From Proteus penneri (GTDB lineage Bacteria; Pseudomonadota; Gammaproteobacteria; Enterobacterales; Enterobacteriaceae), in contig NZ_PHFJ01000001.1 of the NCBI RefSeq assembly GCF_003144535.1, positions 434,001 through 498,000 on the forward strand: 64,000 nucleotides of DNA, written 5' to 3'. Numbering within the stretch: the stretch's first letter is position 1; every line of letters begins with the position of its first letter. A program made the translations under genes and the position numbers. Below, in pieces: positions 9,373 through 53,145 of this stretch. Under the pieces are notes generated by a model. That model saw only the letters and a program-made list of their open reading frames with translations, searched no databases and was not told where the DNA came from.

Positions 9373-9933
9373 ATGCTTAAAAGAAAAATGCTAGTTAAAA
9401 CCGTATTAGCTGTATCAGTTTTATCACTGAGTAGTATTGCTTCGGCGGCTACTATTGTTAATGGTGGTAAAATTAATTTTACGGGGCAAATAGTAAATGC
9501 TGCATGTGCTGTTAGTGCAAAGTCAATGAATCAAACTATCAATATTGGTCAATATCGAACAGCCCAATTTGATAGTGTTGGTAAAACTGTTGGAAACACT
9601 GATTTTTCGATTGATTTAGAAGCGTGTGATACTACAGTTGCAAAAAATGCCTCAGCATCATTTTCAGGTGTTAGTGATTCAAATGACAAAACAGTATTAG
9701 CTGTCAGTAATATTACAACTGGTGGCGCAGGCGCAGCCACAGGTGTTGGTATTGAGATTACAGACCATACGGGTAAAATTTTATCACCAGATGGTTCTGT
9801 GTTCTCTACCGCTAAACAGTTAATTGACGGAGCTAATACTTTGAATTTTGTTGCCCGCTATAAATCAACATTAGATACAGTAACACCGGGTCAGGCTGAT
9901 GCCAATGTGACTTTTAGAATGCAATATGAATAA
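9373..9933 (+). CDS. type 1-like major fimbrial subunit
   Basis: This is a FimA/MrpA-type pilin of 186 residues. Residues 1-26 are a signal peptide ending ASA. The mature protein has the paired cysteines of the pilin fold (GQIVNAACAVSA and LEACDTT), and the penultimate tyrosine of chaperone-dependent subunits (FRMQYE at the end). GC content and codon choice look closer to ordinary genes here than in the rest of the operon, as expected for a highly expressed protein. A ribosome binding site AAAGGAAAAG precedes the ATG. The hairpin that follows suggests that it is made in excess over the assembly proteins, fitting a role as the main rod subunit. Confidence 0.92.
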   Translation: MLKRKMLVKTVLAVSVLSLSSIASAATIVNGGKINFTGQIVNAACAVSAKSMNQTINIGQYRTAQFDSVGKTVGNTDFSIDLEACDTTVAKNASASFSGVSDSNDKTVLAVSNITTGGAGAATGVGIEITDHTGKILSPDGSVFSTAKQLIDGANTLNFVARYKSTLDTVTPGQADANVTFRMQYE

Positions 9934-9952
9934 GTCTAATTAGTTTATTGAG

Positions 9953-9986
9953 AAGTATGGCCTAATAATAAAGGCCATACTTTTAT
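9953..9986 (+). terminator. partial terminator after the major pilin gene
   Basis: AAGTATGGCC (9953-9962) pairs perfectly with GGCCATACTT (9973-9982), followed by TTATAT. It lies inside the operon, 13 bases before the next gene, and probably lowers read-through into the minor subunit and assembly genes. Confidence 0.75.
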
Positions 9987-9998
9987 ATCGAGGCAAAT

Positions 9999-10541
9999 AT
10001 GAAATATAGCTTAATATATTCTATTGCACTGTTTTTTTCTATTTCATTTACAACATATTCTATAGAAAGGAATAAAACATTTTTAGATGATGGTATTGTT
10101 TATTTTAGGGGAGGTATTGTTGAACCAGCATGTACAGTATCTCCAGAAAGTAAAAATCAGATTGTTGATTTAGGTATTATTAGTAGTAATCAATTTAATG
10201 GTGTAGGAAGTCATTCAATAAAGCTCCCTTTTTTTATTAAATTAATGAATTGTAATAAAAATATGGCTGATAAAGTCAGTTTATATATTTTAGGTGATGT
10301 CAATAGTATAGATAAACGATTATTTAATATTACAGAAAAACAAAATTCAGCTTCAGGTGTTGGTGTTGCACTATTTAATTCTGAAGATGAGATGATAATT
10401 CCAAATAATATTAATAAATATAAGTTTATTAAAGAAAATGAGTTAAAAATAGAATTTAAAGCAAGCTATTTAGCAACAAAAGAAACGGTTATTGGCGGTA
10501 AGGCCGATAGTGTTGTGTGGTTTGTTTTTAGTTATCACTAA
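9999..10541 (+). CDS. minor fimbrial subunit
   Basis: This is a pilin-family protein of 180 residues with a signal peptide (about residues 1-21) and two cysteines in the usual places (VEPACTVSPESKNQ and LMNCNKN). The SPESKNQxVDLG segment is shared with the last pilin of the operon and with MrpB-type minor subunits or terminators. The C-terminus ends in alternating residues with a tyrosine (WFVFSYH), the donor-strand groove strand. It is probably an adaptor, initiator or terminator of the fibre; which one cannot be told from sequence. Confidence 0.82.
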   Translation: MKYSLIYSIALFFSISFTTYSIERNKTFLDDGIVYFRGGIVEPACTVSPESKNQIVDLGIISSNQFNGVGSHSIKLPFFIKLMNCNKNMADKVSLYILGDVNSIDKRLFNITEKQNSASGVGVALFNSEDEMIIPNNINKYKFIKENELKIEFKASYLATKETVIGGKADSVVWFVFSYH

Positions 10542-10565
10542 TTAAACCTGTTACTCGAGGCTCAT

Positions 10566-11258
10566 ATGTATTTAATATATAGAAACTATATTATTTTATT
10601 TTTTCTCTTTTGTTTTTCTTCATTCTCTTATGCTGGAGGTGTAGCATTGGCTGCAACTCGAATTATATATCCAATGGATGCTAAACAGACATCAATTACT
10701 ATTAATAATACAGATAAAAAATTACGTTTTTTAATTCAGTCGTGGATTGATGATAACGATGATAAAAAAACAAATGAATTTATTGTGACTCCACCTCTTT
10801 TTGTAAGTAAGCCTGAAAGTGAAAATAAATTAAGAATTATATATGCAGGAAAAATTTTACCTACTGATAGAGAAAGTTTATTTTGGCTAAATATGAAAGC
10901 AATACCTGAAATTGAAAGAGAAGAAATTAAAGATAAAAATATATTGCAATTGGCCGTGTTATCTAGAATAAAAATATTTGTTAGGCCACAAGGCTTGGTA
11001 TTTAGAACTGAAGATGTTCCTAGTAGTATTGAATTTATACCTTCAGGGAAAAATTTAACAATAAAAAATCCAACACCATATTATGCAACCTTAATTAATA
11101 TAAAAGTCGGAGAAGAAAAGTTGAATAGTACTATGGTGCCGCCTAAAGGATCTATAGAAATAAAAGTCAATAATCCTAGCTATAATCAAATATCTTATCA
11201 AACTATTAATGATTATGGTGCCAGTACGCCAATAATAATAAAAAAGGTTAGTAAATAA
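10566..11258 (+). CDS. periplasmic fimbrial chaperone
   Basis: This is a PapD-like chaperone of 230 residues. A signal peptide (about 1-23, ending SYA) precedes the first immunoglobulin-like domain with GVALAATRIIYP, the F1-G1 hydrophobic strand (LQLAVLSRIKIFVRP) and the conserved RIIYAGK and DRESLFWLN segments typical of this family. It holds unfolded pilins by donating a strand and hands them to the usher encoded 33 bases downstream. Confidence 0.93.
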   Translation: MYLIYRNYIILFFLFCFSSFSYAGGVALAATRIIYPMDAKQTSITINNTDKKLRFLIQSWIDDNDDKKTNEFIVTPPLFVSKPESENKLRIIYAGKILPTDRESLFWLNMKAIPEIEREEIKDKNILQLAVLSRIKIFVRPQGLVFRTEDVPSSIEFIPSGKNLTIKNPTPYYATLINIKVGEEKLNSTMVPPKGSIEIKVNNPSYNQISYQTINDYGASTPIIIKKVSK

Positions 11259-11291
11259 TACTACAAGATTAATTAATGATAAGGTTTTATT

Positions 11292-13883
11292 ATGTTAAAA
11301 TCTAAGACTATAATTTTTAATCTCTATTTCGTTTTAGGATCTTTTTATTCTAGCATTAGTTATGCAGATAGCTTTTTTAATCCTAATTTGATATCGAGCA
11401 TTGATAGTGAAGTTGCAGATTTATCACGCTTTGATAAAGGTGAAGGCCAGCCAGAAGGAATCTATTCAGTCGAAATTTATGTCAATAATGAATATATTGA
11501 AACTAAAAGTATTCCCTTTTATGAAAATAATAAATCATCTGATGGAACAGGGTTGCTACCTTGTTTAAACAATAAAGAATTAAAAAATATAGGTGTGAGT
11601 TTAAATGATGATAGTAAAAAAATTAATAGTAAAGAGTGTATTGATATATTAGATGAGATTGAAAAGTCAAATATTAGATTTGATTTTGAAAGTCAAAAGT
11701 TATTTTTAAGTATTCCACAAGTAATGTTTAAAAATAATGTTCGTGGCTATATTCCTCCAGAAAAATGGGATAATGGTATTAATGCCTTTTTGTTAAATTA
11801 TAATTTTACAGGAAGAAATAGTAAAAATTTCAAAGATAATATTAATAATAATAATTACTTTTTAAATCTAAACCCTGGTATTAATGTAGGATCATGGCGA
11901 CTACGTAATGAAAGCACATGGATGTACGCTAGTGGTGAAAATAACCAGAATAAATGGCGTAATATAAGAACATATGTACAAAAACCGATAATTCCATTAA
12001 AAGCAGAGCTGACAGTGGGTGATTCATTTTCTAGCGGTATCATTTTTGATAGCCTTGGTTTTAGAGGTGCTAAACTAGAATCTGATGATAATATGCTACC
12101 TGATAGTATGAGAGGATTTGCTCCTACAATTAAAGGGATTGCAAATAGCAATGCGATTGTTACTGTTAAACAAAATGGCTTTGTTATCTACCAAATTTCT
12201 GTTCCTCCTGGTGCATTCGAAATAAAAGATCTTTATGCAACATCAAGCAGTGGTAATTTAGATGTGGTAATCAAAGAGAATAATGGAGAAATTACTCAAT
12301 TTGTTGTGCCTTATTCAAATGTTCCTATTTTGCAACGTGAAGGACGCCTTAAATATGAGTTTATTGGAGGGGAATTTAGAAGTGGGTCTGATTTTCAGGA
12401 TAAACCTAATTTTGGGCAATTAAATTTAATTTATGGTTTGCCTTATAATTTAACCCTCTATGGGGGAAGTCAATTTTCGAATAACTATCAAGCTTATGCT
12501 ATTGGTCTAGGTGGAAATTTAGGAAATTTAGGTGCGATATCAGCAGATGTTATTCAAGCAAATAGTATTTTACCAAATGATGAACATAAAAAAGGACAAT
12601 CATTTCGTCTACTTTATGCGAAGTCAATTAATAGCACAGGGACAAACTTTCAAATTATGGGGTATCGATATTCGACTCAAGGATATTATACGTTAAATGA
12701 AGTTAGTTACAATAAAATGGAAGGACGTGAAATTATCACTTCTGATGGAATAATAAGGGATAATGAAAGTTTATCTAACTATTATAATTTAAATTATTCT
12801 AAAAAAGGACGTTTTCAAGTTAATATAAATCAGCAAGTGACGGATAACAGTTCTTTATATTTATTGGGTTCTTATCAAAATTATTGGCGAACAACAGAAA
12901 CAGAACAATTATGGCAAATTGGTTATAATGGAAATATAAAGCAAATTAATTATAGCTTGAATTTTTCTAAATCTAAATCGCCAGGTATGAGTGGAGATAA
13001 TAAAAATATTGCATTTAATATTTCTATTCCTATTAATGATCTTTTTAATCAAAATAGAGTTAATGATTTAAACGCTAGTCGAAATAGTATGTATGCCGTT
13101 TATTCTATGAATAGAAGTAATGACAATGTATGGGTTCAACAAGCTGGATTAACAGGAACATTACTTGAGGATAATAATTTAAATTATAATATCCAACAAG
13201 GGTATGCTCATAACGGTGGTGGTTACTCTGGAATGGTTTATGCTAACTATAAAGGAAAGTATGCTAATCTGGGGAGCGGATATAATTATAATAACGATTG
13301 GCATGAATTAAATTATAATTTAAATGGTGGTGTTGTTGCACATTCTGGTGGAATTACTTTAAGCCAGCCTTTAGGTGATACAAATATTCTTATTAAAGCA
13401 AATGATGCTAATAACATTAGAGTTGAGAATGCTAATGGTATATTAACTAATAATAAAGGATATGCCGTTCTACCTTATGCATCTATTTATAAGAATAATC
13501 GTGTTTCTTTGGATATAAATTCATTAGGTGAAAATATTGAATTAGAAAATGCAATTATGAATGTTATTCCTACTAAAGGAGCATTAGTGCAGGCTAATTT
13601 TAAAACCAATATCGGTTATCGAGCAATAGTAAATTTAAAGAAAAAAAATGGTGCGATTATCCCATTTGGTGCAATGGTTATTGACGAATCGCGTTCTGTA
13701 AGTGGTATTGTTGGTGATAACGGGAATGTCTTTATTTCTGGATTAGCACCTATAGGGAAATTAAAAGCTAAGTGGGGAAGAATGGAAGACCAACAATGTA
13801 CATTTGATTATGAAATTAACGATAAATCATCTAAAGAAAAAGGGATTTATTTTATCTCTTCTACTTGTCAATCTGATAAATAG
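11292..13883 (+). CDS. outer-membrane fimbrial usher
   Basis: This is a FimD/PapC-family usher of 863 residues, full length. A signal peptide ends near residue 25 (ISYA). Then come the N-terminal chaperone-docking domain (FFNPNLISSIDSEVADLSRFDKGEGQPEG, seen in parts), a 24-strand beta barrel with plug (about residues 140-680, including the conserved RGFAPTIKGIANSNAIVTVKQNG region) and C-terminal domains with cysteines at the end (DQQCTFDYE, SSTCQSD). It forms the pore that assembles and secretes the fibre. Confidence 0.95.
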   Translation: MLKSKTIIFNLYFVLGSFYSSISYADSFFNPNLISSIDSEVADLSRFDKGEGQPEGIYSVEIYVNNEYIETKSIPFYENNKSSDGTGLLPCLNNKELKNIGVSLNDDSKKINSKECIDILDEIEKSNIRFDFESQKLFLSIPQVMFKNNVRGYIPPEKWDNGINAFLLNYNFTGRNSKNFKDNINNNNYFLNLNPGINVGSWRLRNESTWMYASGENNQNKWRNIRTYVQKPIIPLKAELTVGDSFSSGIIFDSLGFRGAKLESDDNMLPDSMRGFAPTIKGIANSNAIVTVKQNGFVIYQISVPPGAFEIKDLYATSSSGNLDVVIKENNGEITQFVVPYSNVPILQREGRLKYEFIGGEFRSGSDFQDKPNFGQLNLIYGLPYNLTLYGGSQFSNNYQAYAIGLGGNLGNLGAISADVIQANSILPNDEHKKGQSFRLLYAKSINSTGTNFQIMGYRYSTQGYYTLNEVSYNKMEGREIITSDGIIRDNESLSNYYNLNYSKKGRFQVNINQQVTDNSSLYLLGSYQNYWRTTETEQLWQIGYNGNIKQINYSLNFSKSKSPGMSGDNKNIAFNISIPINDLFNQNRVNDLNASRNSMYAVYSMNRSNDNVWVQQAGLTGTLLEDNNLNYNIQQGYAHNGGGYSGMVYANYKGKYANLGSGYNYNNDWHELNYNLNGGVVAHSGGITLSQPLGDTNILIKANDANNIRVENANGILTNNKGYAVLPYASIYKNNRVSLDINSLGENIELENAIMNVIPTKGALVQANFKTNIGYRAIVNLKKKNGAIIPFGAMVIDESRSVSGIVGDNGNVFISGLAPIGKLKAKWGRMEDQQCTFDYEINDKSSKEKGIYFISSTCQSDK

Positions 13884-13901
13884 CAACTGAATGGGTTTTT
13901 T

Positions 13902-14897
13902 ATGATGAGAATATTATTATTTACGATAATAGCCATTGCTTCAAATAGTGCTATTGCTGTTAACTGCATCAGTGGTTGTAATGCTAATGAAATTTCAACA
14001 CTCAGTGGACAGTTAACAAAGAATGAAAATAAAGTAGGGGTCACTAAAGATGCTTCTGATATTAATTTAACAAATCGAACAACATTAAGGTGGAATGCCG
14101 GTCAAGGACAAACTTGGGCAACATATTCTAATGGTAATATTCCTACAGCTAACACCAGTAATAATGATTGGGTATACTCAAGAATAGATGACTATATATC
14201 TGTGGCTTTAAGGATGACAAATAATTGTAGAACAATTTATGTTCCTTATAATGTACCAACTTTAAGTTCTACTTGTGGTCCTCGTTCTTATACAGAAGGT
14301 GAAGAAGGGGTTGTTTCTACACGAAAATATCAGACACGAATAAAAATAGATAAAGCGATTATTTCAGGTACTTATGTAAATAATATTTTTGTCGGTGAAT
14401 TTGGATTCTGCCAACCACAAAATTGCGCAACAAAACAAGCGGTGATCACTAAGTTATTTTTAAATCTTTCGATATCTGTACCACAATCTTGTGTGATTAA
14501 TTCGGGTCAAGTGTTAAATATTGATTTTGATAATATTCCTGCATCAAGTTTTAAAGAAGCGGGGAAAAAAGCGGAAGGAGTAAATACAATTTCGCGTAAT
14601 TTAAATATTCAATGTGACAATATAGAGGCCAGTGCAGATTTGACAATGCGTTTACAAGCCGATTCTGTATACGGTAATGCAATTGTTTCTAATAATAAAA
14701 GTGTTGGATTTATTATTGCGAACGCTAACGGTACGGAGTTAACCCCTAACGATTTATCCAGTTTTATTCCTTTTAAACTAAATGGAAATTCTGACTCTAA
14801 TGTTACTATTAATGTGTATCCTGTCAGTATTGATGGAAAAACACCAGCAGAAGGTTCCGTGACATCTAGTGGTTTCTTAAGAGTCGATTTCCCTTAA
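13902..14897 (+). CDS. probable fimbrial tip adhesin
   Basis: This two-domain protein has 331 residues. After a signal peptide (about 1-19) an N-terminal domain of roughly 170 residues is rich in cysteines (CISGCNANE, NNCRTIY, STCGPRS, GFCQPQNCATK), as in tip lectins; the C-terminal part (from SVPQSCVINSG) is a pilin domain with the usual cysteine pair. Position between usher and last minor subunit fits a tip adhesin. The ligand cannot be predicted. ATG codons at 13902 and 13905 are both possible starts. Confidence 0.82.
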   Translation: MMRILLFTIIAIASNSAIAVNCISGCNANEISTLSGQLTKNENKVGVTKDASDINLTNRTTLRWNAGQGQTWATYSNGNIPTANTSNNDWVYSRIDDYISVALRMTNNCRTIYVPYNVPTLSSTCGPRSYTEGEEGVVSTRKYQTRIKIDKAIISGTYVNNIFVGEFGFCQPQNCATKQAVITKLFLNLSISVPQSCVINSGQVLNIDFDNIPASSFKEAGKKAEGVNTISRNLNIQCDNIEASADLTMRLQADSVYGNAIVSNNKSVGFIIANANGTELTPNDLSSFIPFKLNGNSDSNVTINVYPVSIDGKTPAEGSVTSSGFLRVDFP

Positions 14898-14916
14898 ATT
14901 TATATAGGCTCACATC

Positions 14917-15474
14917 ATGAATGAGTTATTTTATAGTAACAAAATAATGCGCTCTTTATTATGGATACTATTTTTATTGATAGGGTGTTCAATATTTCTA
15001 GTTCAAGACGCAAAAGCTGAATTGGCAAATACCAATATTGTTATAAAAGCAAATATTGTTGCAAATACATGTAGAGTAAGTCCTGAATCAATGAATAAAT
15101 TCGTAGATTTAGGTGTGTGGGGAACGAAAGACTTTCAGCAAAACAAAACAACAGAACCGATAAAGTTTACGCTTAACTTAACGGATTGTAGTGTATTTAC
15201 GACGGGAGTGAAAGTGACCTTTAAAGGGGATACTGATAATCAAGATAATACACTATTTAAATTGTCAGAAAATGACTCTGCAAAAAATGTTGGGATCGCA
15301 ATTTTAGATAAAAATAAAGATAAGGTATTACCAGGTGAAAGTAGTGTTATTTATCCAGTAGGAACAATCAATAATATTGCTCTTGATTTTTATGCGCAAT
15401 ATGTATCAACAGGGTCGTCTGTTGTCAGTGGTAGTGCAAATGGCGAAGTTTTGTTTTCTTTAGAATATCTTTAA
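14917..15474 (+). CDS. minor fimbrial subunit, last gene of the operon
   Basis: This is a pilin-family protein of 185 residues. The hydrophobic stretch at about residues 12-30, ending DAKA, is the signal peptide; the N-terminus is longer than usual, and the ATG at 14950 would give a more typical leader. The pilin core has paired cysteines (ANTCRVSPESMNK and LTDCSVF) and a FSLEYL end. It resembles the minor subunit near the start of the operon, so the two may fill adaptor and anchor roles. Confidence 0.82.
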   Translation: MNELFYSNKIMRSLLWILFLLIGCSIFLVQDAKAELANTNIVIKANIVANTCRVSPESMNKFVDLGVWGTKDFQQNKTTEPIKFTLNLTDCSVFTTGVKVTFKGDTDNQDNTLFKLSENDSAKNVGIAILDKNKDKVLPGESSVIYPVGTINNIALDFYAQYVSTGSSVVSGSANGEVLFSLEYL

Positions 15475-37616: not shown

Positions 37617-38012
37617 TTGATTTTTTAGATTTTATTTTTATCTATTTTTTTATTAATCAAGGAATAATTAATTCAAATAAATAATTCCAATGATGTTTTT
37701 TAGTATTTTTTTAGATTTGTTATTAATAAATTAACTGTTATTGTTTTTATATTTATTGTTTTTTGTGTTTATTATCTATGAATTTTGTAATGAAATTAAA
37801 TTTTAATGTTCTATATGTTGGTAAAGAGTGGTTGCTAATTATATTTGACTTAAATCACAATTTTTAAAAAATAAAAAAATTTTATTTGTTGAGTTTTTAA
37901 AGTATGGCTAATATCAAATTGACTAGGGTATCCTTTCACACCTTTAGTTAATGATGGCAATAATAGAATCTTATTTTTGCTAATTAAATATTTATCTATT
38001 CTGGAGTTATAT
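37617..38012. other. AT-rich upstream region of the second fimbrial operon
   Basis: No gene is seen in these 396 bases. The end carries the TGGAG ribosome binding site of the pilin gene and probably its promoter. I saw no invertible-element repeats and no regulator gene here. Confidence 0.45.
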
Positions 38013-38603
38013 ATGTTTAAAAATAAACTCCCACTGTCATTATTATCAGTGGCTATATTGTCGTCGTCGGCATTTGCTGCAACAAATAGCGCAGGAGGAA
38101 TAATTTCTTTCTCTGGTGCTATTAGTGATACCACTTGTACTATTAATGGAGGAAATAGTGCGGACTTTTCTATTCTATTAGATCCTATTACCGTAACGGA
38201 TGCAGGAACAACAGCAAATACTGTTATTGCCAAAAATCAAAAAGAGTTTGCTTTGACATTCTCTGATTGTGCTCCAGCATCTACACCAAGTGGCAGTAAT
38301 TTAAAGATACATTTCTCATCTGCAAATACTATTTCAACAAGTGGATTATATTTAGTCAATGATACTGCGAATGAAAATGATCCATTAGTTGCAAAGAATG
38401 TTGGTTTTAGTTTATCAACACCTGCTGCGCCAACAGTTGCTATACCTCTAAATGCAACTTTTGATACAGGTATTAAAGGCGATAAAACAGCGCCAGATTC
38501 AGATACTCTACGCTTAATTGCCAGTTACTATAAAACAAATGCAACAGCAGCTAAAACAGGACCTGTACACTCTAACGTTATTTATACAGTATCTTATTTA
38601 TAA
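38013..38603 (+). CDS. fimbrial major subunit of the second operon
   Basis: This pilin-family protein has 196 residues. The signal peptide is about 1-22 (SVAILSSSAFA). The mature protein starts ATNSAGGIISFSGAISDTTCTING and has the second cysteine in TFSDCAPA; the C-terminus ends NVIYTVSYL with the tyrosine typical of donor-strand pilins. The ATG at 38013 is chosen because it starts the signal peptide and follows TGGAG. The strong hairpin right after it suggests that it is the abundant subunit. Confidence 0.88.
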   Translation: MFKNKLPLSLLSVAILSSSAFAATNSAGGIISFSGAISDTTCTINGGNSADFSILLDPITVTDAGTTANTVIAKNQKEFALTFSDCAPASTPSGSNLKIHFSSANTISTSGLYLVNDTANENDPLVAKNVGFSLSTPAAPTVAIPLNATFDTGIKGDKTAPDSDTLRLIASYYKTNATAAKTGPVHSNVIYTVSYL

Positions 38604-38606
38604 TAT

Positions 38607-38638
38607 AAAAAGCCAGACTCAATGGGTCTGGCTTTTTT
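38607..38638 (+). terminator. strong hairpin between pilin and chaperone genes
   Basis: AAAAAGCCAGAC (38607-38618) pairs with GTCTGGCTTTTT (38626-38637 region) and ends in six T, only about a dozen bases before the chaperone ATG at 38650. It looks like a full terminator, so chaperone, usher and adhesin depend on read-through. Confidence 0.85.
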
Positions 38639-38649
38639 GGGTGCTTATA

Positions 38650-39342
38650 ATGAAAAAATTAATATTACTTTTAATTATCTTGATATTACCTTCAGCCGTA
38701 TTAGCAAACATTATTATTAATGGTACCCGCGTTCTTTACTATGAAGGTGTTGATAGTGTTAATATCGAATTGACAAATAATGGTAATTTAGCTTCTTTGG
38801 TACAAAGTTGGATTGATGATGGAGATATAAACTCAACGCCTGAAGATGCGAACTCTCCTTTTTATTTATATCCACCTATTGTAAAAATTGCAGGAATGCA
38901 AGGGCAAACATTAAGAATAAAAAATTCCGATAAGATACCATCGGAAAATCTTGAAAAAGTATATTATTTAAATGTATTAGATATTCCAGAAAATGTGGAA
39001 GCATTAAAAGGAAAGAGTTATCTTCAATTAGCAATGAAAACAAGAATTAAAGTTTTTTATCGCCCCAAAGGACTTACTGATAACCCAGAGACTGTTAATG
39101 AAAAAATTACTTACCAATTAAATGGCAATAAAGTTCTAGTAAAAAATAACTCACAGTATCATTTCACAATAGCATCTATTTCTACACAAGAGACACCTCG
39201 TATTACGCTTGTTGATTCTGAAATGATCCCTCCGTTATCTTCTCGTGAGTTGCCATTAATTAATACATTAAAAAGTAATTCCGTTGTTGTTATTTATGTT
39301 GATGATTTTGGTGTTTATAAATCACAAAATATTAAACTCTAA
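38650..39342 (+). CDS. fimbrial chaperone (first of two in this operon)
   Basis: This PapD-like chaperone has 230 residues: signal peptide about 1-19 (LPSAVLA), then GTRVLYYEGVDSVNIELTN, the SLVQSWIDDG segment, the LEKVYYLNVLDIP segment, and the LQLAMKTRIKVFYRP strand. The ATG at 38650 begins the signal peptide; the open frame extends upstream but would overlap the terminator. Confidence 0.92.
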   Translation: MKKLILLLIILILPSAVLANIIINGTRVLYYEGVDSVNIELTNNGNLASLVQSWIDDGDINSTPEDANSPFYLYPPIVKIAGMQGQTLRIKNSDKIPSENLEKVYYLNVLDIPENVEALKGKSYLQLAMKTRIKVFYRPKGLTDNPETVNEKITYQLNGNKVLVKNNSQYHFTIASISTQETPRITLVDSEMIPPLSSRELPLINTLKSNSVVVIYVDDFGVYKSQNIKL

Positions 39343-39355
39343 TCGAGATAACATC

Positions 39356-41869
39356 GTGAATAATCCAAGATATCTCTCAATCCTTATTTTTTTAGGAATA
39401 CAACATTACACTCAAAATCTGTACGCAGAGGGATTTGACACATCTTTGCTTGTTGGGAATTCAAAGAATGGAGATATTTCACGATTTTATATCGACGATA
39501 AAATCCCTGAAGGAAAACAACTTGTTGATGTTTATGTTAATCAAGAATGGAAAGGGCAATTTGAAATAAATGTAACGGGTGAACATGCAGAGGTTAGTTT
39601 TGAGCCAGTAGATGTAAATAAACTGGGCTTAAATTTATCTTTATCCGCAAAACAAAAACTTGTGCAACAAAAAACAATATTATCAAATGAATTGGCAAAA
39701 GGTGTGACATCGGTATTAGATATAAATAAATTAAGGCTTGATATTAATGCTCCCCAAATTTCGGTGAAAAAATCAGAAGTTGGGTATGTTGATCCGAGTT
39801 ATTGGCAACAAGGTATTTCTGCACTGATTTTGTCTTATAATTTGAATTACTATAACTATAAAGAAAAAAAAGGAAGTAAAAGCAATAACGAAAATTTTTT
39901 TGCCAATATTCATTCAGGTATTAATTTAGGTGCGTGGCAGTTTAGAGATGAATCTAACTACTCTTATTATTCTCATGGTAACAGCCAATGGAAAAACAAT
40001 ACACGCTATGTTTATAAGGCGTTTAGTCAGATAACTTCGGGATTAACAATTGGTGATTTTTATACACCAGCAACACTTTTTACCAGCATTGCATTTAGAG
40101 GAGCATCGTTGGCAACAGAAATGGGAATGCTACCTAACTCAAGTCAAGGTTTTGCTCCTATTATTCGAGGTGTTGCACAAACAAACGCATTAGTTAGTGT
40201 TTATCAAAATGAAAATTTAGTTTTTCAAGAAAATGTACCTCCTGGGGAGTTTTCTTTTCGAGATATTCAACCCACAGCTGGTGGTGGTGATCTATTAGTG
40301 GTTGTTCAAGAAGCTGATGGTAGAAGAGAGTCATTTACGGTGCCATTTTCAGCCGTGCCCGACATGCTAAAAGAAGGTGTATATCGCTATAACGTGATAC
40401 TGGGGGAATCACGGATTAATAATACTGATTACCGACCTAAATTTGCACAAGGTGAGTTTCATTATGGCTTAAGTAACCTTGTTACACTTTATGCTGGAGG
40501 CATTGCCAGTGAAGATTATTACTCTGCATTGATAGGTAGTGGCTGGAATTTTAGATTCGGGGCAATTTCAGCAGATATAACACATGCAAGTGCAGATTTA
40601 CAGACGGGTAAAAAAACCGGACAAAGCTTTCGTCTCGCTTATAGTAAATATATGGATGCAACATTAACCAATTTAACATTGGCTGCTTATCGTTATTCTA
40701 CTCGTGATTATTATAGCTTTGTAGATTCAATTTATGCCCATGACAACTATAAAGCTTGGAAAGATTATCAAAATGATATTGCTCAACAACAAAATAATAA
40801 TAATGCAATATCTGATCTTGATTTATCAACGTTTGATGCACTACGAGGTTCTAGAGCAAAAAATACGTTTACTATAAATCTTAATCAATATTTGGGTGGA
40901 CAACGTGGTGTTATTTTTCTTTCAGGGACACATCGAAACTATTGGAATACAGATGAGAGTAATCGCGAGTATCAGTTAGGCTATTCAAATAATTATAAGG
41001 ATATTGCGTATAATCTTTCTGTCTCAAAGTTAAGAAATTACGATAATAAAGACGAGACTCGTTATTATTTTAATATTAGTGTGCCGATTTCATTTTTTGA
41101 TAAAAGAGCCAATATTAATAATTCAATTTATGCGGCTGATTCACGTTACCAGCAATCTACAATTAGTATGAGTGGAACAGCAGGTAAAGATGACCTAGTT
41201 AATTATACTTTAACAGGTTCAAATCAAACGGGTGGAAATAATTTAGTCGGTGCAAATGTCAGTTATCGTCATCCATATAGCACATTATCTGCATCTTATA
41301 CGGAAGCAAATAATTATCGCCAGGGGGGATTAGGTGCTCGAGGAACAGTTGTTGCCGTACCTAATCATATTGTTTTTTCAGGTAATACAGGGAATACCTA
41401 TACTCTTATCGAAGCACCTATGGCCAATAATATGATGGTTAATGGAAATAAAGCCACATTAACCAATAATCAAGGAATAGTATTAGTGCCTAATAGTATC
41501 CCTTATCGTACAAATAATTATACTTTGACAAATACCGAAATGCCTTCAAATGCCGAGCTTGTTGGAAATACAACTCAGGTGGCTCCGTATTTAGGCGCAG
41601 TTAATTACCTCACATTAACAACGGATAAACGTAAGACATTTATTATTAAAGCATCTTTAGAAAATAATGAAAGTTTACCTTTCGGTACGGAAGTTTTAAA
41701 TAGTAAAAAAGAGAGTATTGGTTATGTCGGACAATCAAGTGTGCTTTATTTAAAAAGTGATGAGTTACCTTCTTCACTCTTTATAAAATTAAATAAAGCT
41801 GAAAAGATGGAATGTGTTGTGGAGCATTTAATAAATACGATGGATAAAAATAGTAATATTTGTCGATAA
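39356..41869 (+). CDS. fimbrial usher of the second operon
   Basis: This outer-membrane usher has 837 residues, close to full length. I chose the GTG at 39356, preceded by GAGAT and giving a usable leader (NNPRYLSILIFLGI ... LYA). Landmarks: N-terminal docking domain (FDTSLLVGNSKNGDISRF), RGVAQTNALVSVYQNENLVFQENVPPG read in parts near residue 265, barrel repeats to about 690, and a C-terminal cysteine pair (MECVVEH, NSNICR). Confidence 0.94.
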   Translation: MNNPRYLSILIFLGIQHYTQNLYAEGFDTSLLVGNSKNGDISRFYIDDKIPEGKQLVDVYVNQEWKGQFEINVTGEHAEVSFEPVDVNKLGLNLSLSAKQKLVQQKTILSNELAKGVTSVLDINKLRLDINAPQISVKKSEVGYVDPSYWQQGISALILSYNLNYYNYKEKKGSKSNNENFFANIHSGINLGAWQFRDESNYSYYSHGNSQWKNNTRYVYKAFSQITSGLTIGDFYTPATLFTSIAFRGASLATEMGMLPNSSQGFAPIIRGVAQTNALVSVYQNENLVFQENVPPGEFSFRDIQPTAGGGDLLVVVQEADGRRESFTVPFSAVPDMLKEGVYRYNVILGESRINNTDYRPKFAQGEFHYGLSNLVTLYAGGIASEDYYSALIGSGWNFRFGAISADITHASADLQTGKKTGQSFRLAYSKYMDATLTNLTLAAYRYSTRDYYSFVDSIYAHDNYKAWKDYQNDIAQQQNNNNAISDLDLSTFDALRGSRAKNTFTINLNQYLGGQRGVIFLSGTHRNYWNTDESNREYQLGYSNNYKDIAYNLSVSKLRNYDNKDETRYYFNISVPISFFDKRANINNSIYAADSRYQQSTISMSGTAGKDDLVNYTLTGSNQTGGNNLVGANVSYRHPYSTLSASYTEANNYRQGGLGARGTVVAVPNHIVFSGNTGNTYTLIEAPMANNMMVNGNKATLTNNQGIVLVPNSIPYRTNNYTLTNTEMPSNAELVGNTTQVAPYLGAVNYLTLTTDKRKTFIIKASLENNESLPFGTEVLNSKKESIGYVGQSSVLYLKSDELPSSLFIKLNKAEKMECVVEHLINTMDKNSNICR

Positions 41870-41880
41870 AGGAAAGCGCT

Positions 41881-42960
41881 ATGAAATCACCAGCTTTTAT
41901 ATTTATAATTTTATTAGGTGCGATAAGCCAACAGGCAATTGCTAATTGTAAACCTGAGGAAACTATTACGGCACCCAATATTAACTTTGATTTATCTGCA
42001 GATTTAAATGCAGCTTCAACAACTGTAACAAAAACGAGTAGAACAACATTTCCGGGTACCTTTAAATGTAATGCAAGAGGAGTATTATTTCCTAATACTG
42101 TGGGTATTGCCTCACCTTTTAATGATGGTCGAACGGGAACAATTGGTTTTAATGGTGGGAAGCAGTTTGTCTCTATTACATTAACGGCATTAGAAAAAGA
42201 TAATGTAACGAATATTTCAGCGGGAACACACCCTGCATCAGATTTAGATACTAATTTCACCTTAAAATTTACGTTATTGAGTAGTAAACCCTCGACCAAT
42301 TATAAAGAGGTGAGTGGAAATACAGCGGTTGTTAATCCTGTTATTTTAGCGTCAGATGCATCGAGTGTTGGGTTAGTTCAGTGGTTACTTAATATTGTTA
42401 TTAAACTTGTGCAATTCTTATTAACGTGGCAATGGCCAGTTGATCAAAATGATATTTTCTTACAACCAATGCTAATTACTTATAATCCTGTCATGACAAC
42501 CTGTAATTTTTCTAATGCGGGTTTAGTTGTTTCATTGCCATTAATCAGTGTAAAAGATGCAAAAACGGTAGATAAAGCAGGATACACGCCTTTTACATTA
42601 AATTTTACGTGCCAAGACTTTTTAAGTGGTTCAAAAGCGTCTAGAAATATTAAGATGTTTTTATCGAGCCAAAATTTATTGGCGACAGACAAAACTATAT
42701 TAACTAATACAACAGCGCAAGGTGCGGGGGGGATCGGATTCCGTGTAGTAAAAAGTGATAATATCAATAGCCCCGTTATTTTTTCTGACAATATTAATTC
42801 TCAAGGCAGTGCGACCAGTATTTTCAGTGTTAATCAAGGTGGCAACTTATCCTCTGCATTTTCGATAAATATGGGGGCTTATTATTATCCTTATAGTGTT
42901 AATTCAGTTACTCAAGGGAAAATAACAAGCACTGCGACATTAGTGATGTCTTATGACTAA
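41881..42960 (+). CDS. probable tip adhesin of the second operon
   Basis: This exported protein has 359 residues: signal peptide about 1-22, an N-terminal domain with only one close cysteine pair (Cys23 and Cys63), and a C-terminal pilin-like domain from about residue 205 (TCNFSNAGLVV ... FTCQDF). An unusual feature is a strongly hydrophobic stretch at about residues 161-184 (SVGLVQWLLNIVIKLVQFLL) between the domains. It has no close resemblance to FimH that I can see. AAAGGAAA precedes the ATG at 41881. Position after the usher supports an adhesin role. Confidence 0.72.
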   Translation: MKSPAFIFIILLGAISQQAIANCKPEETITAPNINFDLSADLNAASTTVTKTSRTTFPGTFKCNARGVLFPNTVGIASPFNDGRTGTIGFNGGKQFVSITLTALEKDNVTNISAGTHPASDLDTNFTLKFTLLSSKPSTNYKEVSGNTAVVNPVILASDASSVGLVQWLLNIVIKLVQFLLTWQWPVDQNDIFLQPMLITYNPVMTTCNFSNAGLVVSLPLISVKDAKTVDKAGYTPFTLNFTCQDFLSGSKASRNIKMFLSSQNLLATDKTILTNTTAQGAGGIGFRVVKSDNINSPVIFSDNINSQGSATSIFSVNQGGNLSSAFSINMGAYYYPYSVNSVTQGKITSTATLVMSYD

Positions 42961-42972
42961 AGAGTGTATCTA

Positions 42973-43680
42973 ATGAAAAAAATAATAAATGTTAGTTTTA
43001 TTTTATTATTTACGCTTATAACATCCATAGCAAAGGCAAGTGTGGTACTTGAACGTACACGTTTAATTTTCCCCATGGACAAATCAACACTATCATTGCA
43101 AATTTTTAATCGCAGTGAACAGCCAACATTAGTTCAATCTTGGATAGATGATGGTGATATTGCATCAACGCCTGAGACGACAACAGCGCCTTTCATTGTA
43201 ATTCCTCCTATAATGAAAGTCTCTGCTAATGGGGGAGCACAATTAAAAATACAACAATTAGAAAATAAATTGCCTCAAGATAGAGAATCTATTTTTTATC
43301 TTAATGTGCTTGATATTCCACCTAGACCTAACAGCAGCGAAAATGCCAATACGTTACAATTAGCATTACAAACTCGCATCAAGCTTTTCTATCGTCCTAA
43401 ACAACTTGAATTAACCAGTAGCACTATTTTTAAACAGATTGAAATTATAAAGAAACAGCAGAATTTAGAGATTAATAATCCTTCAGCATATTTTTTTACG
43501 ATTTCAAAAATGTATACACAAGAGAATATAGAGCAATCTTTAATTGAGCCCACCATGATAGCGCCTTTCTCAAAACAGGAAGTCGAATATAAAGGACGAA
43601 TTAATACTAACCAAGTTATTACAGTCATCTATATAGATGATGATGGAAATTATCAGCAAGATAAGAAGAATATACATTAG
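42973..43680 (+). CDS. fimbrial chaperone (second of two in this operon)
   Basis: This is another complete PapD-like chaperone of 235 residues (signal peptide about 1-21, VVLERTRLIFPMD, TLVQSWIDDGD, DRESIFYLNVLDIPP, LQLALQTRIKLFYRP). It differs clearly from the first copy, so it is not a recent duplication. Being next to the adhesin gene, it may be a dedicated adhesin chaperone. The ATG at 42973 is preferred to the GTG at 42964. Confidence 0.9.
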   Translation: MKKIINVSFILLFTLITSIAKASVVLERTRLIFPMDKSTLSLQIFNRSEQPTLVQSWIDDGDIASTPETTTAPFIVIPPIMKVSANGGAQLKIQQLENKLPQDRESIFYLNVLDIPPRPNSSENANTLQLALQTRIKLFYRPKQLELTSSTIFKQIEIIKKQQNLEINNPSAYFFTISKMYTQENIEQSLIEPTMIAPFSKQEVEYKGRINTNQVITVIYIDDDGNYQQDKKNIH

Positions 43681-46045: not shown

Positions 46046-46207
46046 TTATTTGACTTTCATTCCGGCTAACGTCATTAAAAAGCGAAAGAGGGAAGAAACA
46101 GTGAATAAGGCTAAAACACTACAAAACCAAATAGTAATTAACCATCCCCATTTTTTTAATAATGAGGGTTTACTTTGTATTTGTGGATCAGTGATAACCT
46201 TCTTCAT
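46046..46207 (-). CDS. DUF2474 single-helix subunit of the cytochrome bd oxidase
   Basis: This 53-residue protein has one membrane helix (about 21-43, WGWLITIWFCSVLALFTVSSLF) and the FLMTLAGMK end of DUF2474 proteins, which accompany CIO-type cytochrome bd genes much as CydX accompanies CydAB. The start at 46207 lies inside the end of cydB (20-base overlap), so translation is probably coupled. Confidence 0.85.
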   Translation of the reverse strand: MKKVITDPQIQSKPSLLKKWGWLITIWFCSVLALFTVSSLFRFLMTLAGMKVK

Positions 46208-47195
46208 AATTTGTTTTTCCTCTGAAAACGTAATAACTCCAGAATGTGTAAACGAGAATAATAGGGATGATAAACAGCGCGCCAACTAACATAAATCCTT
46301 GGCTTTCTGGTGGAGCCGATGCATCTACAAAACTAATTGCAGGTGGAATAATGTTAGGCCAAATGCTTATCCCTAACCCAGCAAAACCCAAGAAAATTAA
46401 AGCGAGCGCGCCAAAAAAAGGAAGGTAATGCCCTTGTCTTTTCACTGAGCGCAAAATTAACCAAGTACTGTACAACACTAAAAGAGGAACAGGTAAAAAG
46501 AAGAAAAGGTTAGGCAATGTGAACCAACGTTCAGCAATTGCAGGTTGCGCTAATGGTGTCCATACACTGACGACCACAATAACGGCAAGCATAATGAGAG
46601 CAAGAGGTTTAGCAACCTTATATAGATTTTGTTGTAAATGATCTTCGGTTTTCATAATCAACCAGCCACATCCTAATAAGGAGTAGGCGACAACTAAACC
46701 AAAACCACAGAAAAGTGCAAAAGGCGACAGCCAATCAAAATAGCTACCTGCAAAGGCGCGATTAACAACCGGTAGACCTTGAACAACGCTACCAACGACA
46801 ACACCTTGCATAAAAGTGGCTAAGATAGAGCCAAAGATAAATGATTTATCCCAAAAACCTTTGTGATTATTATCGGCTTTAAAACGAAATTCAAAGGCAA
46901 CACCACGGAAAATTAGTGCGACAAGCATTAATGTTAAAGGCATTGCCAAAGCATCAAGAATAACCGCATAAGCTAATGGGAAGGCGCCAAATAATGCTGC
47001 TCCTCCTAGAACTAACCATGTTTCGTTACCATCCCATACAGGGGCAACAGTATTCATCATTACGTCACGATCTTGGTCACTTTTAATCAATGGATAAAGC
47101 ATACCGATACCAAGATCGAAACCATCCATCACGATATACATTAGCGTACTAAATACAATAATGATGAACCAAATAACTGGTAAATCAATTCCCAT
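46188..47195 (-). CDS. cydB: cytochrome bd (CIO-type) quinol oxidase subunit II
   Basis: This is the second large subunit of a bd oxidase, 335 residues with eight or nine helices. The opening DLPVIWFIIIVFSTLMYIVMDGFDLGIGMLYPL, seen in parts, and NTVAPVWDGNETWLVLGG near residue 48 are diagnostic. It overlaps the cydA-like gene by 11 bases. The subunit appears intact even though subunit I is interrupted. Confidence 0.95.
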   Translation of the reverse strand: MGIDLPVIWFIIIVFSTLMYIVMDGFDLGIGMLYPLIKSDQDRDVMMNTVAPVWDGNETWLVLGGAALFGAFPLAYAVILDALAMPLTLMLVALIFRGVAFEFRFKADNNHKGFWDKSFIFGSILATFMQGVVVGSVVQGLPVVNRAFAGSYFDWLSPFALFCGFGLVVAYSLLGCGWLIMKTEDHLQQNLYKVAKPLALIMLAVIVVVSVWTPLAQPAIAERWFTLPNLFFFLPVPLLVLYSTWLILRSVKRQGHYLPFFGALALIFLGFAGLGISIWPNIIPPAISFVDASAPPESQGFMLVGALFIIPIILVYTFWSYYVFRGKTNYEEGYH

Positions 47196-48519
47196 GATGA
47201 ACCTCCGGTGTACCTTTGCGGATCAGTTTTAACATATAGGCATATCCAACACCGAATACAGAGCTATAAACGACTAAGAAGATCAGCAGGCTTATACTCA
47301 TATGCATTTCACCATGTGCAGATACAGCATCTCGTGTTCGCTGTATGCCATAAACAACCCAAGGTTGACGACCTACTTCCGTTGTAAACCAACCAGCAAG
47401 AATAGCGATAAGTCCCGAAGGCGCCATTAAAAACGTTAAGCGTAAGAAGGTCTTAGATTCATAAAGTTTCTTTTTATATCGCAGTCAAGTTCCCCAAACA
47501 CCGACGAAAATCATTAATATGCCAAGGCCAACCATAATGCGGAAAGACCAGAAAACGATAAGTGAGTTAGGTCGATCTTCTTTAGGAAACTCTTTTAATG
47601 CTGGAACTTGTTTCTCTAAGCTATGAGTTAAGATCATGCTACCAAGATAAGGAATTTCTATTTTATATTTCGTTTCTTCGGCATCCATATCAGGTACACC
47701 AAAGAGAATTAACGGTGTCGCTTCTCCCGGTTCATTCTTCCAATGACCTTCAATAGCGGCAATTTTAGCGGGCTGATGTTTTAAGGTGTTTAAACCATGA
47801 ACATCACCAATGAGTGCTTGAATTGGTGCTAAAATTAAAATCATCCATAAAGACATTGAAAGCATCTTTTTCATGGCTGATGTTTTATGGCCTTTGAGTA
47901 GATGCCATGAGGCAGATGCCGCAATAAAGAAGGCAGAGGCAAGGAAAGCGGCAACCCCCATATGAGCAAGACGATAAGGGAACGATGGATTGAAAATAAC
48001 GGCGATCCAATCTACTGGAACGACTTGGTTATTTATAATTTCAAACCCTTGCGGTGTTTGCATCCAGCTATTTGAAGCCAAGATCCAAAACGTAGACATT
48101 AATGTGCCTAATGCCACCATACAAGTGGCGAAAAAGTGAAGTTTTTCACCTACTTTATTCCAACCAAACAGCATCACGCCTAAGAAACCTGCTTCTAAGA
48201 AGAAAGCGGTAAGTACTTCATAAGTAAGTAGAGGGCCTGTAATTGAGCCCGCAAAATCAGAGAAAAAACTCCAGTTGGTTCCAAATTGATAGGCCATGAC
48301 CAAACCAGAGACAACGCCCATCGCAAAGTTAACAGCGAATATTTTTGACCAAAAATGAAATAGCGCTAAATAATCCTTATTGCGCGTTTTTAACCATAAA
48401 CCTTCCAGTACGGCTAAAAAACTAGCCAGTCCAATAGTAATTGCGGGGAAGATAATATGAAAAGAAACTGTGAACGCAAACTGGATACGCGCCAAATCAA
48501 AGGCACTTAACCCAAGCAT
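47185..48519 (-). pseudogene. cydA: cytochrome bd (CIO-type) quinol oxidase subunit I, interrupted by an in-frame TGA
   Basis: Read through, the frame encodes 444 residues of a bd-oxidase subunit I with a short Q-loop (CIO type). His21 (SFHIIFP) is the axial ligand of haem b595, LEAGFLGVML and RLAHMGVAA are conserved, and SFRIMVGLG near residue 330 carries the methionine ligand of haem b558. A TGA stands at codon 345 (plus-strand 47485-47487) in GVWGT-stop-LRYKKKLYESK; related proteins have a large aromatic, usually Trp, there, and one base change (TGG to TGA) explains it. The frame continues undisturbed for 99 codons (FLMAPSGLIAILAGWFTTEVGRQPW in parts), containing the last two helices. Either a recent nonsense mutation, a sequence error, or read-through (the base after TGA is C, a leaky context). 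The first ATG is at 48519. Confidence 0.88.
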
Positions 48520-48655: not shown

Positions 48656-50071
48656 ATGACTCGATATGAACAGCTTGCAGCGCAAATACGTCAACAAATT
48701 GAAGATAATATCTGGCAATCTGGCGACCGTTTACCTTCATTACGGGATACGGTGAAACAATCTGGTTTAAGTTTAATGACGGTTTTACAATCGTATCAGT
48801 TATTAGAAAGTCAAGGATGGATAGCAGCGCGACCACAATCAGGTTATTACGTTGCACATCGTAATAACCGTTTCGGTCAAGTGACAGCCAGCAAAGGGTT
48901 ACACATGAGTGAAAATGTTGAAATAAGCACCTCTATTTTCAATGTACTTCAAGCGTGTAAAGATCCTGACATTATTCCTTTTGGTTCCGCTTTCCCCGAT
49001 CCCAGTTTATTTATTCAGCCTAAATTAAGTAGGGCGTTAGCTTCTGCTGCAAGACATTTAGCGCCGCAAAGTTCAGTGATCAATCTACCTCCGGGAAATG
49101 AAAAGTTACGCCGTAACATTGCACAACGTTATGCATTACAAGGAATTCATGTCTCTCCAGATGAAATTGTGATTACTGCCGGCGCAATGGAATCACTAAG
49201 TTTTAGTTTGCAAGCCGTTACTGAACCGGGTGATTGGGTTGTGATTGAATCACCTGCATTTTATGGTGCATTACAAGCAATAGAGCGTTTGCGATTAAAA
49301 GCGATTGCCATTAGAACAGATCCAGTAACAGGAATTTGTTTAGATGAACTCGAAAAAGTGGTTGAGCAATACGATATTAAAGCTTGTTGGTTGATGAGTC
49401 ATTGTCAAAATCCATTAGGTGGAACAATGCCTGATGAAAATAAAATAAGGCTGGTGGGCATATTAGCGAAGAAACAGATAACGCTAATCGAAGATGATGT
49501 TTATGGTGAACTCTATAACAGCCAGAAAGCACCTATGCCAGTAAAAGGGTTTGATAAAACAAATAGCGTTTTACATTGTGCTTCTTTTTCTAAATGTCTT
49601 GCGCCAGGATTTCGTGTAGGTTGGGTTGCCGCTGGAAAACACGCAACAAAAATACAGCAGTTGCAAATGATGAGTACAGTATCTGCGAGTATGCCAACAC
49701 AACAAGCTATTGCCGATTATTTGTCACAAGGTGGTTATGATACGCATCTTCGTCGATTAAGATTAGTATTAGAACAAAGACGTTATCGTATGTTACAGGC
49801 GATACAAACGTATTTACCAGAAGATGTAAAAGTAAATATTCCATCAGGAGGATATTTTCTTTGGTTAGAGTTTGAATCAACATTTGATGCGAATAAACTC
49901 TATCATTTTGCACTAGAAAGAGGTGTCAGTATTGCGCCTGGTTCAATGTTTTCCACTAGCTCCCAATTTGATCATGCATTTCGTTTAAATTCTTCTTTTC
50001 AATGGAATAGTCGTACTGAAAAAGGAATGGAAATAATAGGTGCAGGGTGCAAGAACTTACGACGTAAATAG
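48656..50071 (+). CDS. ydcR: MocR-type regulator (GntR plus aminotransferase domain), YdcR-like
   Basis: This 471-residue regulator has an N-terminal winged helix (YEQLAAQIRQQIEDNIWQSGDRLPSLRDTVKQSG in parts, about 4-70) and a C-terminal fold-type I aminotransferase domain with the PLP lysine in SFSKCLAPGFRVGW near residue 305. It is close to E. coli YdcR (468 residues) throughout. The effector and targets are unknown. It is divergent from the cyd operon (136-base gap) and is followed by ves. Confidence 0.9.
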   Translation: MTRYEQLAAQIRQQIEDNIWQSGDRLPSLRDTVKQSGLSLMTVLQSYQLLESQGWIAARPQSGYYVAHRNNRFGQVTASKGLHMSENVEISTSIFNVLQACKDPDIIPFGSAFPDPSLFIQPKLSRALASAARHLAPQSSVINLPPGNEKLRRNIAQRYALQGIHVSPDEIVITAGAMESLSFSLQAVTEPGDWVVIESPAFYGALQAIERLRLKAIAIRTDPVTGICLDELEKVVEQYDIKACWLMSHCQNPLGGTMPDENKIRLVGILAKKQITLIEDDVYGELYNSQKAPMPVKGFDKTNSVLHCASFSKCLAPGFRVGWVAAGKHATKIQQLQMMSTVSASMPTQQAIADYLSQGGYDTHLRRLRLVLEQRRYRMLQAIQTYLPEDVKVNIPSGGYFLWLEFESTFDANKLYHFALERGVSIAPGSMFSTSSQFDHAFRLNSSFQWNSRTEKGMEIIGAGCKNLRRK

Positions 50072-52254: not shown

Positions 52255-53145
52255 TTATTGAGATGAATTGGCAAACTCTTTTGTGACAATTTCAGTAGCT
52301 TTAGCAATAATATCTTTACGGTATTTTGCATCTTTTTCTTGTTGTGTAAAATAAACGACTAAAATTAATGGTGCATGGTTTTCTGGCCAAATAACGGCAA
52401 TATCGTTAGTTGTACCATAATCACCACTACCGGTTTTATCGCCAACAATCCAGTGTTTTGGTAAACCCGCTTTAATACTGTGATCACCTGTTGTATTACC
52501 TTTTAACCAAGTAACAAGTTGTTGGCGTTGAGATTGACCTAATGCGTCACCTAATGTTAATGCTTGAAGGCTTTTAGCCATCGCAATTGGAGAGGTGGTA
52601 TCACGAGGATCACCATGAATGGCTGTATTTAATTCAGGCTCTTTGCGATCTAGGCGATAAGTTACATCATTAATTGAACGTGCAAATTGAGTAACGCTGG
52701 AAGGTCCTCCTAAATAATCTAGAATTTTATTCATTGCCGTATTATCACTATATTGCAAGGTGGCTGCACTTAATTGAGCTAAAGACATTCCTGTTACTAA
52801 ATGCTTTTCTGTAATAGGACTGTAAGCAACCAAGTCAGATTTTTTAATCGCAATGTTCTTATCTAATAATCCCGCTTGTTTTTCACTCTCTTTTAAAACA
52901 GCCGCAACAGCCATAACTTTACTTGTACTTGCCATCGCAAAACGTTCTTCACCACGGTATGTTATTTGTGAGTTATCTTCCGTGTTGATTAAAGCCACTC
53001 CTAAACGACCTTGATTGTATTTTTCAAGCTCACTTAATTGCGCTTCAATTGTATTATTGGTGTTAGCCCATAGAGTGGCGGATGCCAATAGAGATATTAA
53101 TGAAACTGCGATCGCAGCAGTTTGGCGAAATGTTTTTTTAAACAT
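52255..53145 (-). CDS. hugA: class A beta-lactamase, HugA/CumA-type cefuroximase
   Basis: This periplasmic serine beta-lactamase has 296 residues and hydrolyses penicillins and oxyimino-cephalosporins such as cefuroxime in its known relatives. Signal peptide about 1-27 (ending LWA). Catalytic motifs: Ser73-Thr-Ser-Lys76, SDN near 132, the omega loop RKEPELN with the catalytic Glu, and KTGSGDYG near 236. The overall sequence is what I recall for the chromosomal enzymes of P. penneri (HugA) and P. vulgaris (CumA); I cannot separate these by eye. It is divergent from its LysR regulator, so inducible expression is expected. Confidence 0.95.

What the first reader, a model, noticed from the sequence alone, without database searches (positions are those of the whole stretch)
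47185..48519. Cytochrome bd subunit I gene split by a single in-frame TGA
The frame of the subunit I gene is intact on both sides of one TGA at 47485-47487; the parts before and after it are strongly conserved oxidase sequence. A TGG to TGA change explains it. The stop is followed by C, the leakiest context for TGA. Subunit II and the DUF2474 subunit remain intact, which argues for a very recent loss, a sequencing error, or functional read-through. The protein cut at 344 residues would lack its last two helices.
Basis: seen in the sequence. Interest (0 to 1): 0.72.

Follow-up and report, generated by a model that had tools for sequence, protein, structure and literature searches.

The report
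Spare oxidase gene with premature stop
In this Proteus genome the main gene of a spare oxygen-using respiratory enzyme has a single stop signal inside it; it looks like an ordinary, very recent gene breakage (or a sequencing error), not a new kind of decoding.

Summary
The 19 other genus genomes searched each carry a full-length orthologue without a stop, with one and the same sense codon at the aligned place. The gene shows no decay: no private residue besides the stop, and dN/dS on both sides as low as in intact orthologues. So the stop is very young, an assembly error, or tolerated. The cut chain ends between two haem ligands (Met329 before, Glu381 after), so it should not form an active oxidase. 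The genome keeps open genes for bd-I subunits I and II and for a haem-copper oxidase subunit I, so loss is affordable; another genome of the genus has deleted nearly all of a second CIO operon. No sign of programmed read-through: tRNA-Trp ordinary, RF2 open, no RNA fold after the stop, no stop in the relatives examined; a tRNA-Sec gene exists, but no hairpin for it. Best reading: recent nonsense mutation, null CIO. Error cannot be excluded without reads. Ordinary; low interest.

The parts
47185..48519 (-). Interrupted gene for CIO-type cytochrome bd subunit I (444 codons read through plus terminal stop)
47485..47487 (-). In-frame TGA, codon 345, next base C
47488..48519 (-). Part before the stop, 344 aa, with the equivalents of His19, Glu99, His186 and Met393 of E. 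coli CydA (His21, Glu101, His186, Met329 here; pairing read by hand from the alignment)
   Evidence: Glu99, His186, Met393 and Glu445 as ligands in PMC6853902 passages; His19 in PMC5322542 passages
47185..47484 (-). Part after the stop, 99 codons plus terminal stop, two hydrophobic segments, Glu381 (equivalent of Glu445) and GRQPW
46188..47195 (-). Cytochrome bd subunit II, open, overlaps the end of subunit I by 11 bases, own GGAGG in front of its ATG
46046..46207 (-). DUF2474 small membrane subunit (CydX-like), 53 aa, open
   Evidence: DUF2474 as a character of CIO subtype C in PMC5322542 passages
48656..50071 (+). Divergent neighbour: MocR-type regulator (GntR domain plus aminotransferase-like domain), open; a regulatory link to the operon is not shown

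Best explanation
A single-base nonsense substitution arose recently in this lineage in the subunit I gene of its CIO-type cytochrome bd operon. Translation ends after residue 344, at the end of the seventh hydrophobic region; the last two helices and the Glu that binds haem b595 are missing, so CioAB is not assembled in active form and the operon is a fresh pseudogene. The cell tolerates this because a bd-I oxidase and a haem-copper oxidase remain. Shown: the stop in the assembly, stop-free relatives, lack of decay, open genes of the other oxidases. Inferred: that the sequence is true, that termination is efficient, that the truncated protein is inactive, that the other oxidases work.
For: Stop in 1 of 20 genus genomes, the own one; the other 19 without. 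Same sense codon in 19 of 19 at the aligned place; 80 of 80 loci from genome contigs without a stop and with a residue there (the best 80 of 578 kept, at least three of them genes already seen). Median dN/dS against the 19 relatives 0.021 before and 0.060 after the stop, within the range of the intact genes (0.014-0.046 and 0.046-0.099); no private residues in the own gene. 8 private codons whose residue is shared against 0 private replacement codons, which bounds the unconstrained share of the private branch at about one eighth (rough). Glu445 of E. coli aligns with Glu381, after the stop (counted by hand from the printed alignment; ligand role from PMC6853902 passages). Other oxidase genes open: bd-I subunits I and II on C18, haem-copper oxidase subunit I on C21. 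Precedent for loss: G013 retains only the first part of subunit I of a second CIO operon that G002 has whole; loss of spare oxidase loci by premature stops or deletion, cio included, is described in Bordetella (PMC11257404, passages).
Against: No decay at all can equally mean a sequencing error or a still useful gene. No second isolate of the same species and no raw reads were available. Inactivity of a 344-residue chain was not tested. Under the same test four of five relatives show no gene with a stop or frame break in this stretch, so a break here is not routine.
Confidence: 0.68

Rival explanations
1. The stop is a base error in a 26-contig draft assembly; the strain's gene is intact.
For: It is the only replacement-type private difference in an otherwise fully constrained gene; the genome is a draft of 26 contigs; broken genes are rare in this stretch in five relatives.
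Against: The assembly is rated 100% complete with 0.26% contamination, and no other gene placed in the window is disrupted relative to five relatives, so errors are not frequent here.
Confidence: 0.22
2. The stop is real but leaky: near-cognate decoding by tRNA-Trp yields a few per cent of full-length subunit I, enough for some oxidase.
For: UGA is the leakiest stop in E. coli reporters (PMC11126739, passages) and UGA-C is described as inefficient in bacteria (PMC5289835, passages). Constraint after the stop is undiminished.
Against: No relative examined has a stop here, so no conserved read-through device. Among the places of the 71 RF00005 hits ARAGORN reads one tRNA-Trp, anticodon CCA, and no UCA anticodon; that tRNA-Trp is identical in 16 of the 20 genus genomes, own included. 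A tRNA-Sec gene, which reads UGA by nature, lies on C7, but no hairpin follows this UGA, z -0.26. RF2 is present with its frameshift site and an Ala before SGAGGQ, the efficient form as I recall it.
Confidence: 0.07
3. Split protein: the downstream part is made from an internal start (ATG at 47427, 80 aa) and joins the 344-residue part in the membrane.
For: The break falls between hydrophobic segments 7 and 8; an 80-aa frame starts 57 bases after the stop.
Against: By eye no ribosome-binding sequence stands before that ATG (sequence printed), and the start (residue 365) lies within the next hydrophobic segment.
Confidence: 0.02

Closest known systems
CIO-type (subtype C) cytochrome bd oxidase, cioAB plus DUF2474
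   Same: Short subunit I of 444 codons without the long Q-loop extension, subunit II, DUF2474 gene appended (PMC5322542 passages)
   Different: Subunit I is cut by a stop at codon 345
Recently inactivated terminal oxidase genes in bacteria (Bordetella cco, cio, cyo loci)
   Same: Spare oxidase loci lost by premature stops or deletion while others remain (PMC11257404, passages)
   Different: Here one nonsense codon with no further decay, seen in a single genome
Bacterial UGA recoding (prfB frameshift site, selenoprotein UGA)
   Same: UGA followed by C, as at the prfB site (PMC5289835, passages), which this genome also has; a tRNA-Sec gene is present
   Different: No relative examined shares the stop, no downstream structure, and a +1 shift would leave the frame that continues after this stop

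Membership tests
CIO-type cytochrome bd oxidase | Subunit I of cytochrome bd family | tested here: met
   PF01654 matches both parts
CIO-type cytochrome bd oxidase | No long Q-loop extension in subunit I | tested here: met
   444 residues against 514-522 in E. coli bd-II and bd-I; the E. coli chains align in two pieces with about 65 extra residues between them
CIO-type cytochrome bd oxidase | DUF2474 small subunit after subunit II (subtype C) | tested here: met
   PF10617 at 46046-46207
CIO-type cytochrome bd oxidase | All haem ligands in one open frame | tested here: not met
   Met329 before and Glu381 after the stop
CIO-type cytochrome bd oxidase | Cyanide-insensitive oxidase activity | not testable with these tools
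   needs a respiration assay
Programmed UGA read-through | Stop conserved in relatives with constraint on both sides | tested here: not met
   no stop in 19 of 19 genus orthologues nor in 80 of 80 loci
Programmed UGA read-through | Suppressor tRNA or altered tRNA-Trp | tested here: not met
   tRNA modifications and weak tRNA-like genes below the RF00005 first look not tested
Selenocysteine insertion | tRNA-Sec in the genome | tested here: met
   RF01852 match over cut-off on C7, 80.4 bits against 47
Selenocysteine insertion | Stem-loop right after UGA | tested here: not met
   63 bases from the UGA fold no better than shuffles, z -0.26
Recent pseudogene | Inactivating change absent from close relatives, little further decay | tested here: met
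Recent pseudogene | Inactivating change present in the DNA of the isolate, not only in the assembly | not testable with these tools
   no reads available

The most novel reading that the evidence does not exclude
The stop is a leaky switch: the strain makes low, condition-dependent amounts of full-length CIO by near-cognate decoding of UGA-C, so the operon is throttled rather than dead.
Probability: 0.06. Interest if true: 0.5.

Novelty: new member of a known kind. Interest (0 to 1): 0.12.

Why it matters
It is a clean example of how a spare terminal oxidase may start to be lost, caught before any other decay, and a reminder that two gene calls here are one interrupted subunit I gene. It would matter more only if full-length protein were shown despite the stop.

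Tried and rejected
Rejected: selenocysteine at this UGA (no hairpin; relatives hold an ordinary sense codon), although a tRNA-Sec gene is present. Rejected: a changed genetic code or suppressor tRNA (no other gene split in the window). Rejected: a +1 frameshift as at prfB; the site shares UGA-C with prfB, but the open frame continues in frame 0. Rejected: long-standing pseudogene. In one search the further flags in the window were judged from their coordinates to be a last-codon length difference, an upstream extension and an antisense frame, and they drop out under the rules. One search also flagged a gene in G003; one search shows that it runs off the end of the fetched stretch, so it is not a break. 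Under one rule for all six genomes the own genome has one disrupted gene, G013 one (a frame break without a stop in a fimbrial-cluster gene), G002 two partial placements without stops each seen from one relative only, and G009, G014 and G003 none apart from frames at the edges. One search was wrong (some loci stood on the other strand) and was redone; its numbers are not used. (392 genomes of the family, 283 with a match) prints no stop except in the own genome, but its list is cut by the tool, so no rate is claimed. One search (plasmids collection) found two Proteus mirabilis records of about 4.1 Mb at 82% identity over the whole stretch; not examined further. Literature: (Proteus, cytochrome bd, premature stop codon) gave one paper, on another organism by its title; (Proteus mirabilis, cioA) listed 10 of 31 papers, none on this gene by title; (cytochrome bd, pseudogene, cydA, premature stop) listed 15 of 62. 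That no report of this stop was found rests on these listings only.

Full report
What is there. The minus-strand frame 48519-47185 encodes a cytochrome bd subunit I of 444 codons with one internal TGA at codon 345 (47487-47485), followed by C. Each side matches Pfam PF01654 alone and the two matches follow on in the profile. Subunit II starts 11 bases before the end of subunit I, has its own GGAGG, and is open; a DUF2474 gene follows. The finding's coordinates, residue count and context are correct.

What enzyme. The best solved relatives by sequence are E. coli bd-II and bd-I and chain 5doq_A, a bd-type quinol oxidase. The short subunit I and the DUF2474 gene are marks of the cyanide-insensitive (CIO) type and its subtype C in PMC5322542 (passages). 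Scanned as two parts, subunit I matches the NCBIfam equivalog models of E. coli bd-I and bd-II far under their cut-offs, in line with a different type, though the split lowers the scores. The genome is of the genus Proteus: locus L020 of handle G007, called same genus, has the contig length and range of a record of Proteus hauseri ATCC 700826.

Is the stop shared? Not in what was searched. The 19 other genus genomes each have the full-length orthologue, 91-99% identical, without a stop, and one and the same sense codon at the aligned place. Eighty loci from genome contigs, the best 80 of 578 that one search confirmed, cover the place with a residue (six kinds, the commonest in 65) and no stop; at least three of these 80 are genes already seen. 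In the family search of 392 genomes, 283 with a match, no printed row but the own one has a stop; the list is cut.

How old is it? The own gene has no private residue besides the stop; the other 19 have 0 to 16. Median dN/dS against the 19 is 0.021 before and 0.060 after the stop, inside the range of the intact genes. Synonymous distances to the closest sequence on the tree (L006) are 0.26 before and 0.20 after the stop, so there was time for changes. Eight private codons whose residue is shared with others, and no private replacement codon, bound the share of the private branch without constraint at about 12% (rough: Poisson, transition bias set to 2, private codons taken as branch changes). 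The gene was thus maintained until very recently, or still is.

Error or real? This cannot be settled here. The assembly has 26 contigs and is rated complete and clean, and this is the only disrupted gene placed in the window against five relatives (51, 46, 49, 57 and 47 frames placed). With the same rule turned round, one of the five relatives (G013) has a gene with a frame break in the same stretch, G002 shows two partial placements without stops, each from a single relative, and the other three show none away from the edges. So a broken gene in such a stretch occurs in the genus but is not routine.

What the stop does. In E. coli CydA haem b558 is held by His186 and Met393, and Glu445 binds haem b595 (PMC6853902, passages). 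In the printed alignment Met393 pairs with Met329 and Glu445 with Glu381 (counted by hand; positions). The stop lies between them, and two hydrophobic segments follow it. A 344-residue chain should therefore lack a haem ligand and two helices. Loss of activity is inferred, not shown.

Can the cell afford it? The genome has open genes for bd-I subunits I and II on contig C18 and for a haem-copper oxidase subunit I on C21. Within the genus, five of the 20 genomes have a second CIO subunit I, 76-77% identical to this one, and in G013 most of that second operon is deleted, leaving pieces of 58 and 25 codons between flanks that match G002. Loss of spare oxidase loci by premature stops or deletion is described for Bordetella (PMC11257404, passages).

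Read-through? UGA is the leakiest stop in E. coli reporters (PMC11126739, passages). UGA-C is called inefficient in bacteria, but +4A is the base linked to misreading by tRNA-Trp in E. coli (PMC5289835, passages), and another data set points to G (PMC11126739), so 'leakiest' is not agreed. The genome has 71 RF00005 hits; at their places ARAGORN reads one tRNA-Trp, anticodon CCA, and no UCA anticodon. That tRNA is identical in 16 of 20 genus genomes, own included, with a five-pair anticodon stem, read by eye from the sequence printed; four-pair stems are tied to UGA decoding in PMC13092985 (start of abstract, listing). A tRNA-Sec gene, which reads UGA, lies on contig C7, but the 63 bases from this stop on have no notable fold. 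prfB is present, has its frameshift site with UGA-C, and an Ala before SGAGGQ, which I recall as the efficient form. Basal leakage remains possible; a special device does not show.

Verdict. A real sequence feature as far as the assembly goes, most likely a fresh nonsense mutation in a dispensable CIO subunit I gene, with assembly error as the main rival. Ordinary in kind.

Noticed in passing
G013:C1 about 3278808-3279039 (L210) against L211: A second CIO operon, whole in G002, is reduced in G013 to the first part of subunit I between conserved flanking DNA.
   Followed up: partly
G013 syntenic stretch, fimbrial-cluster gene matching window 41860-42960: Frame break without a stop in G013 relative to four relatives.
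   Followed up: partly
window 52255-53145: Chromosomal gene that looks like a class A beta-lactamase (motifs recalled, no family call made); open as a frame.
   Followed up: no
window 48656-50071: MocR-type regulator diverging from the oxidase operon; best NCBIfam match PdxR is under its cut-off, so its effector is open.
   Followed up: partly
L208 (G000:C20): prfB keeps the programmed frameshift site with UGA-C, so UGA recoding is expected in this genome at that gene.
   Followed up: partly
window 9373-15474 and 37977-43680: Two clusters that look like chaperone-usher fimbrial genes on the plus strand, judged from the frames without a family search.
   Followed up: no
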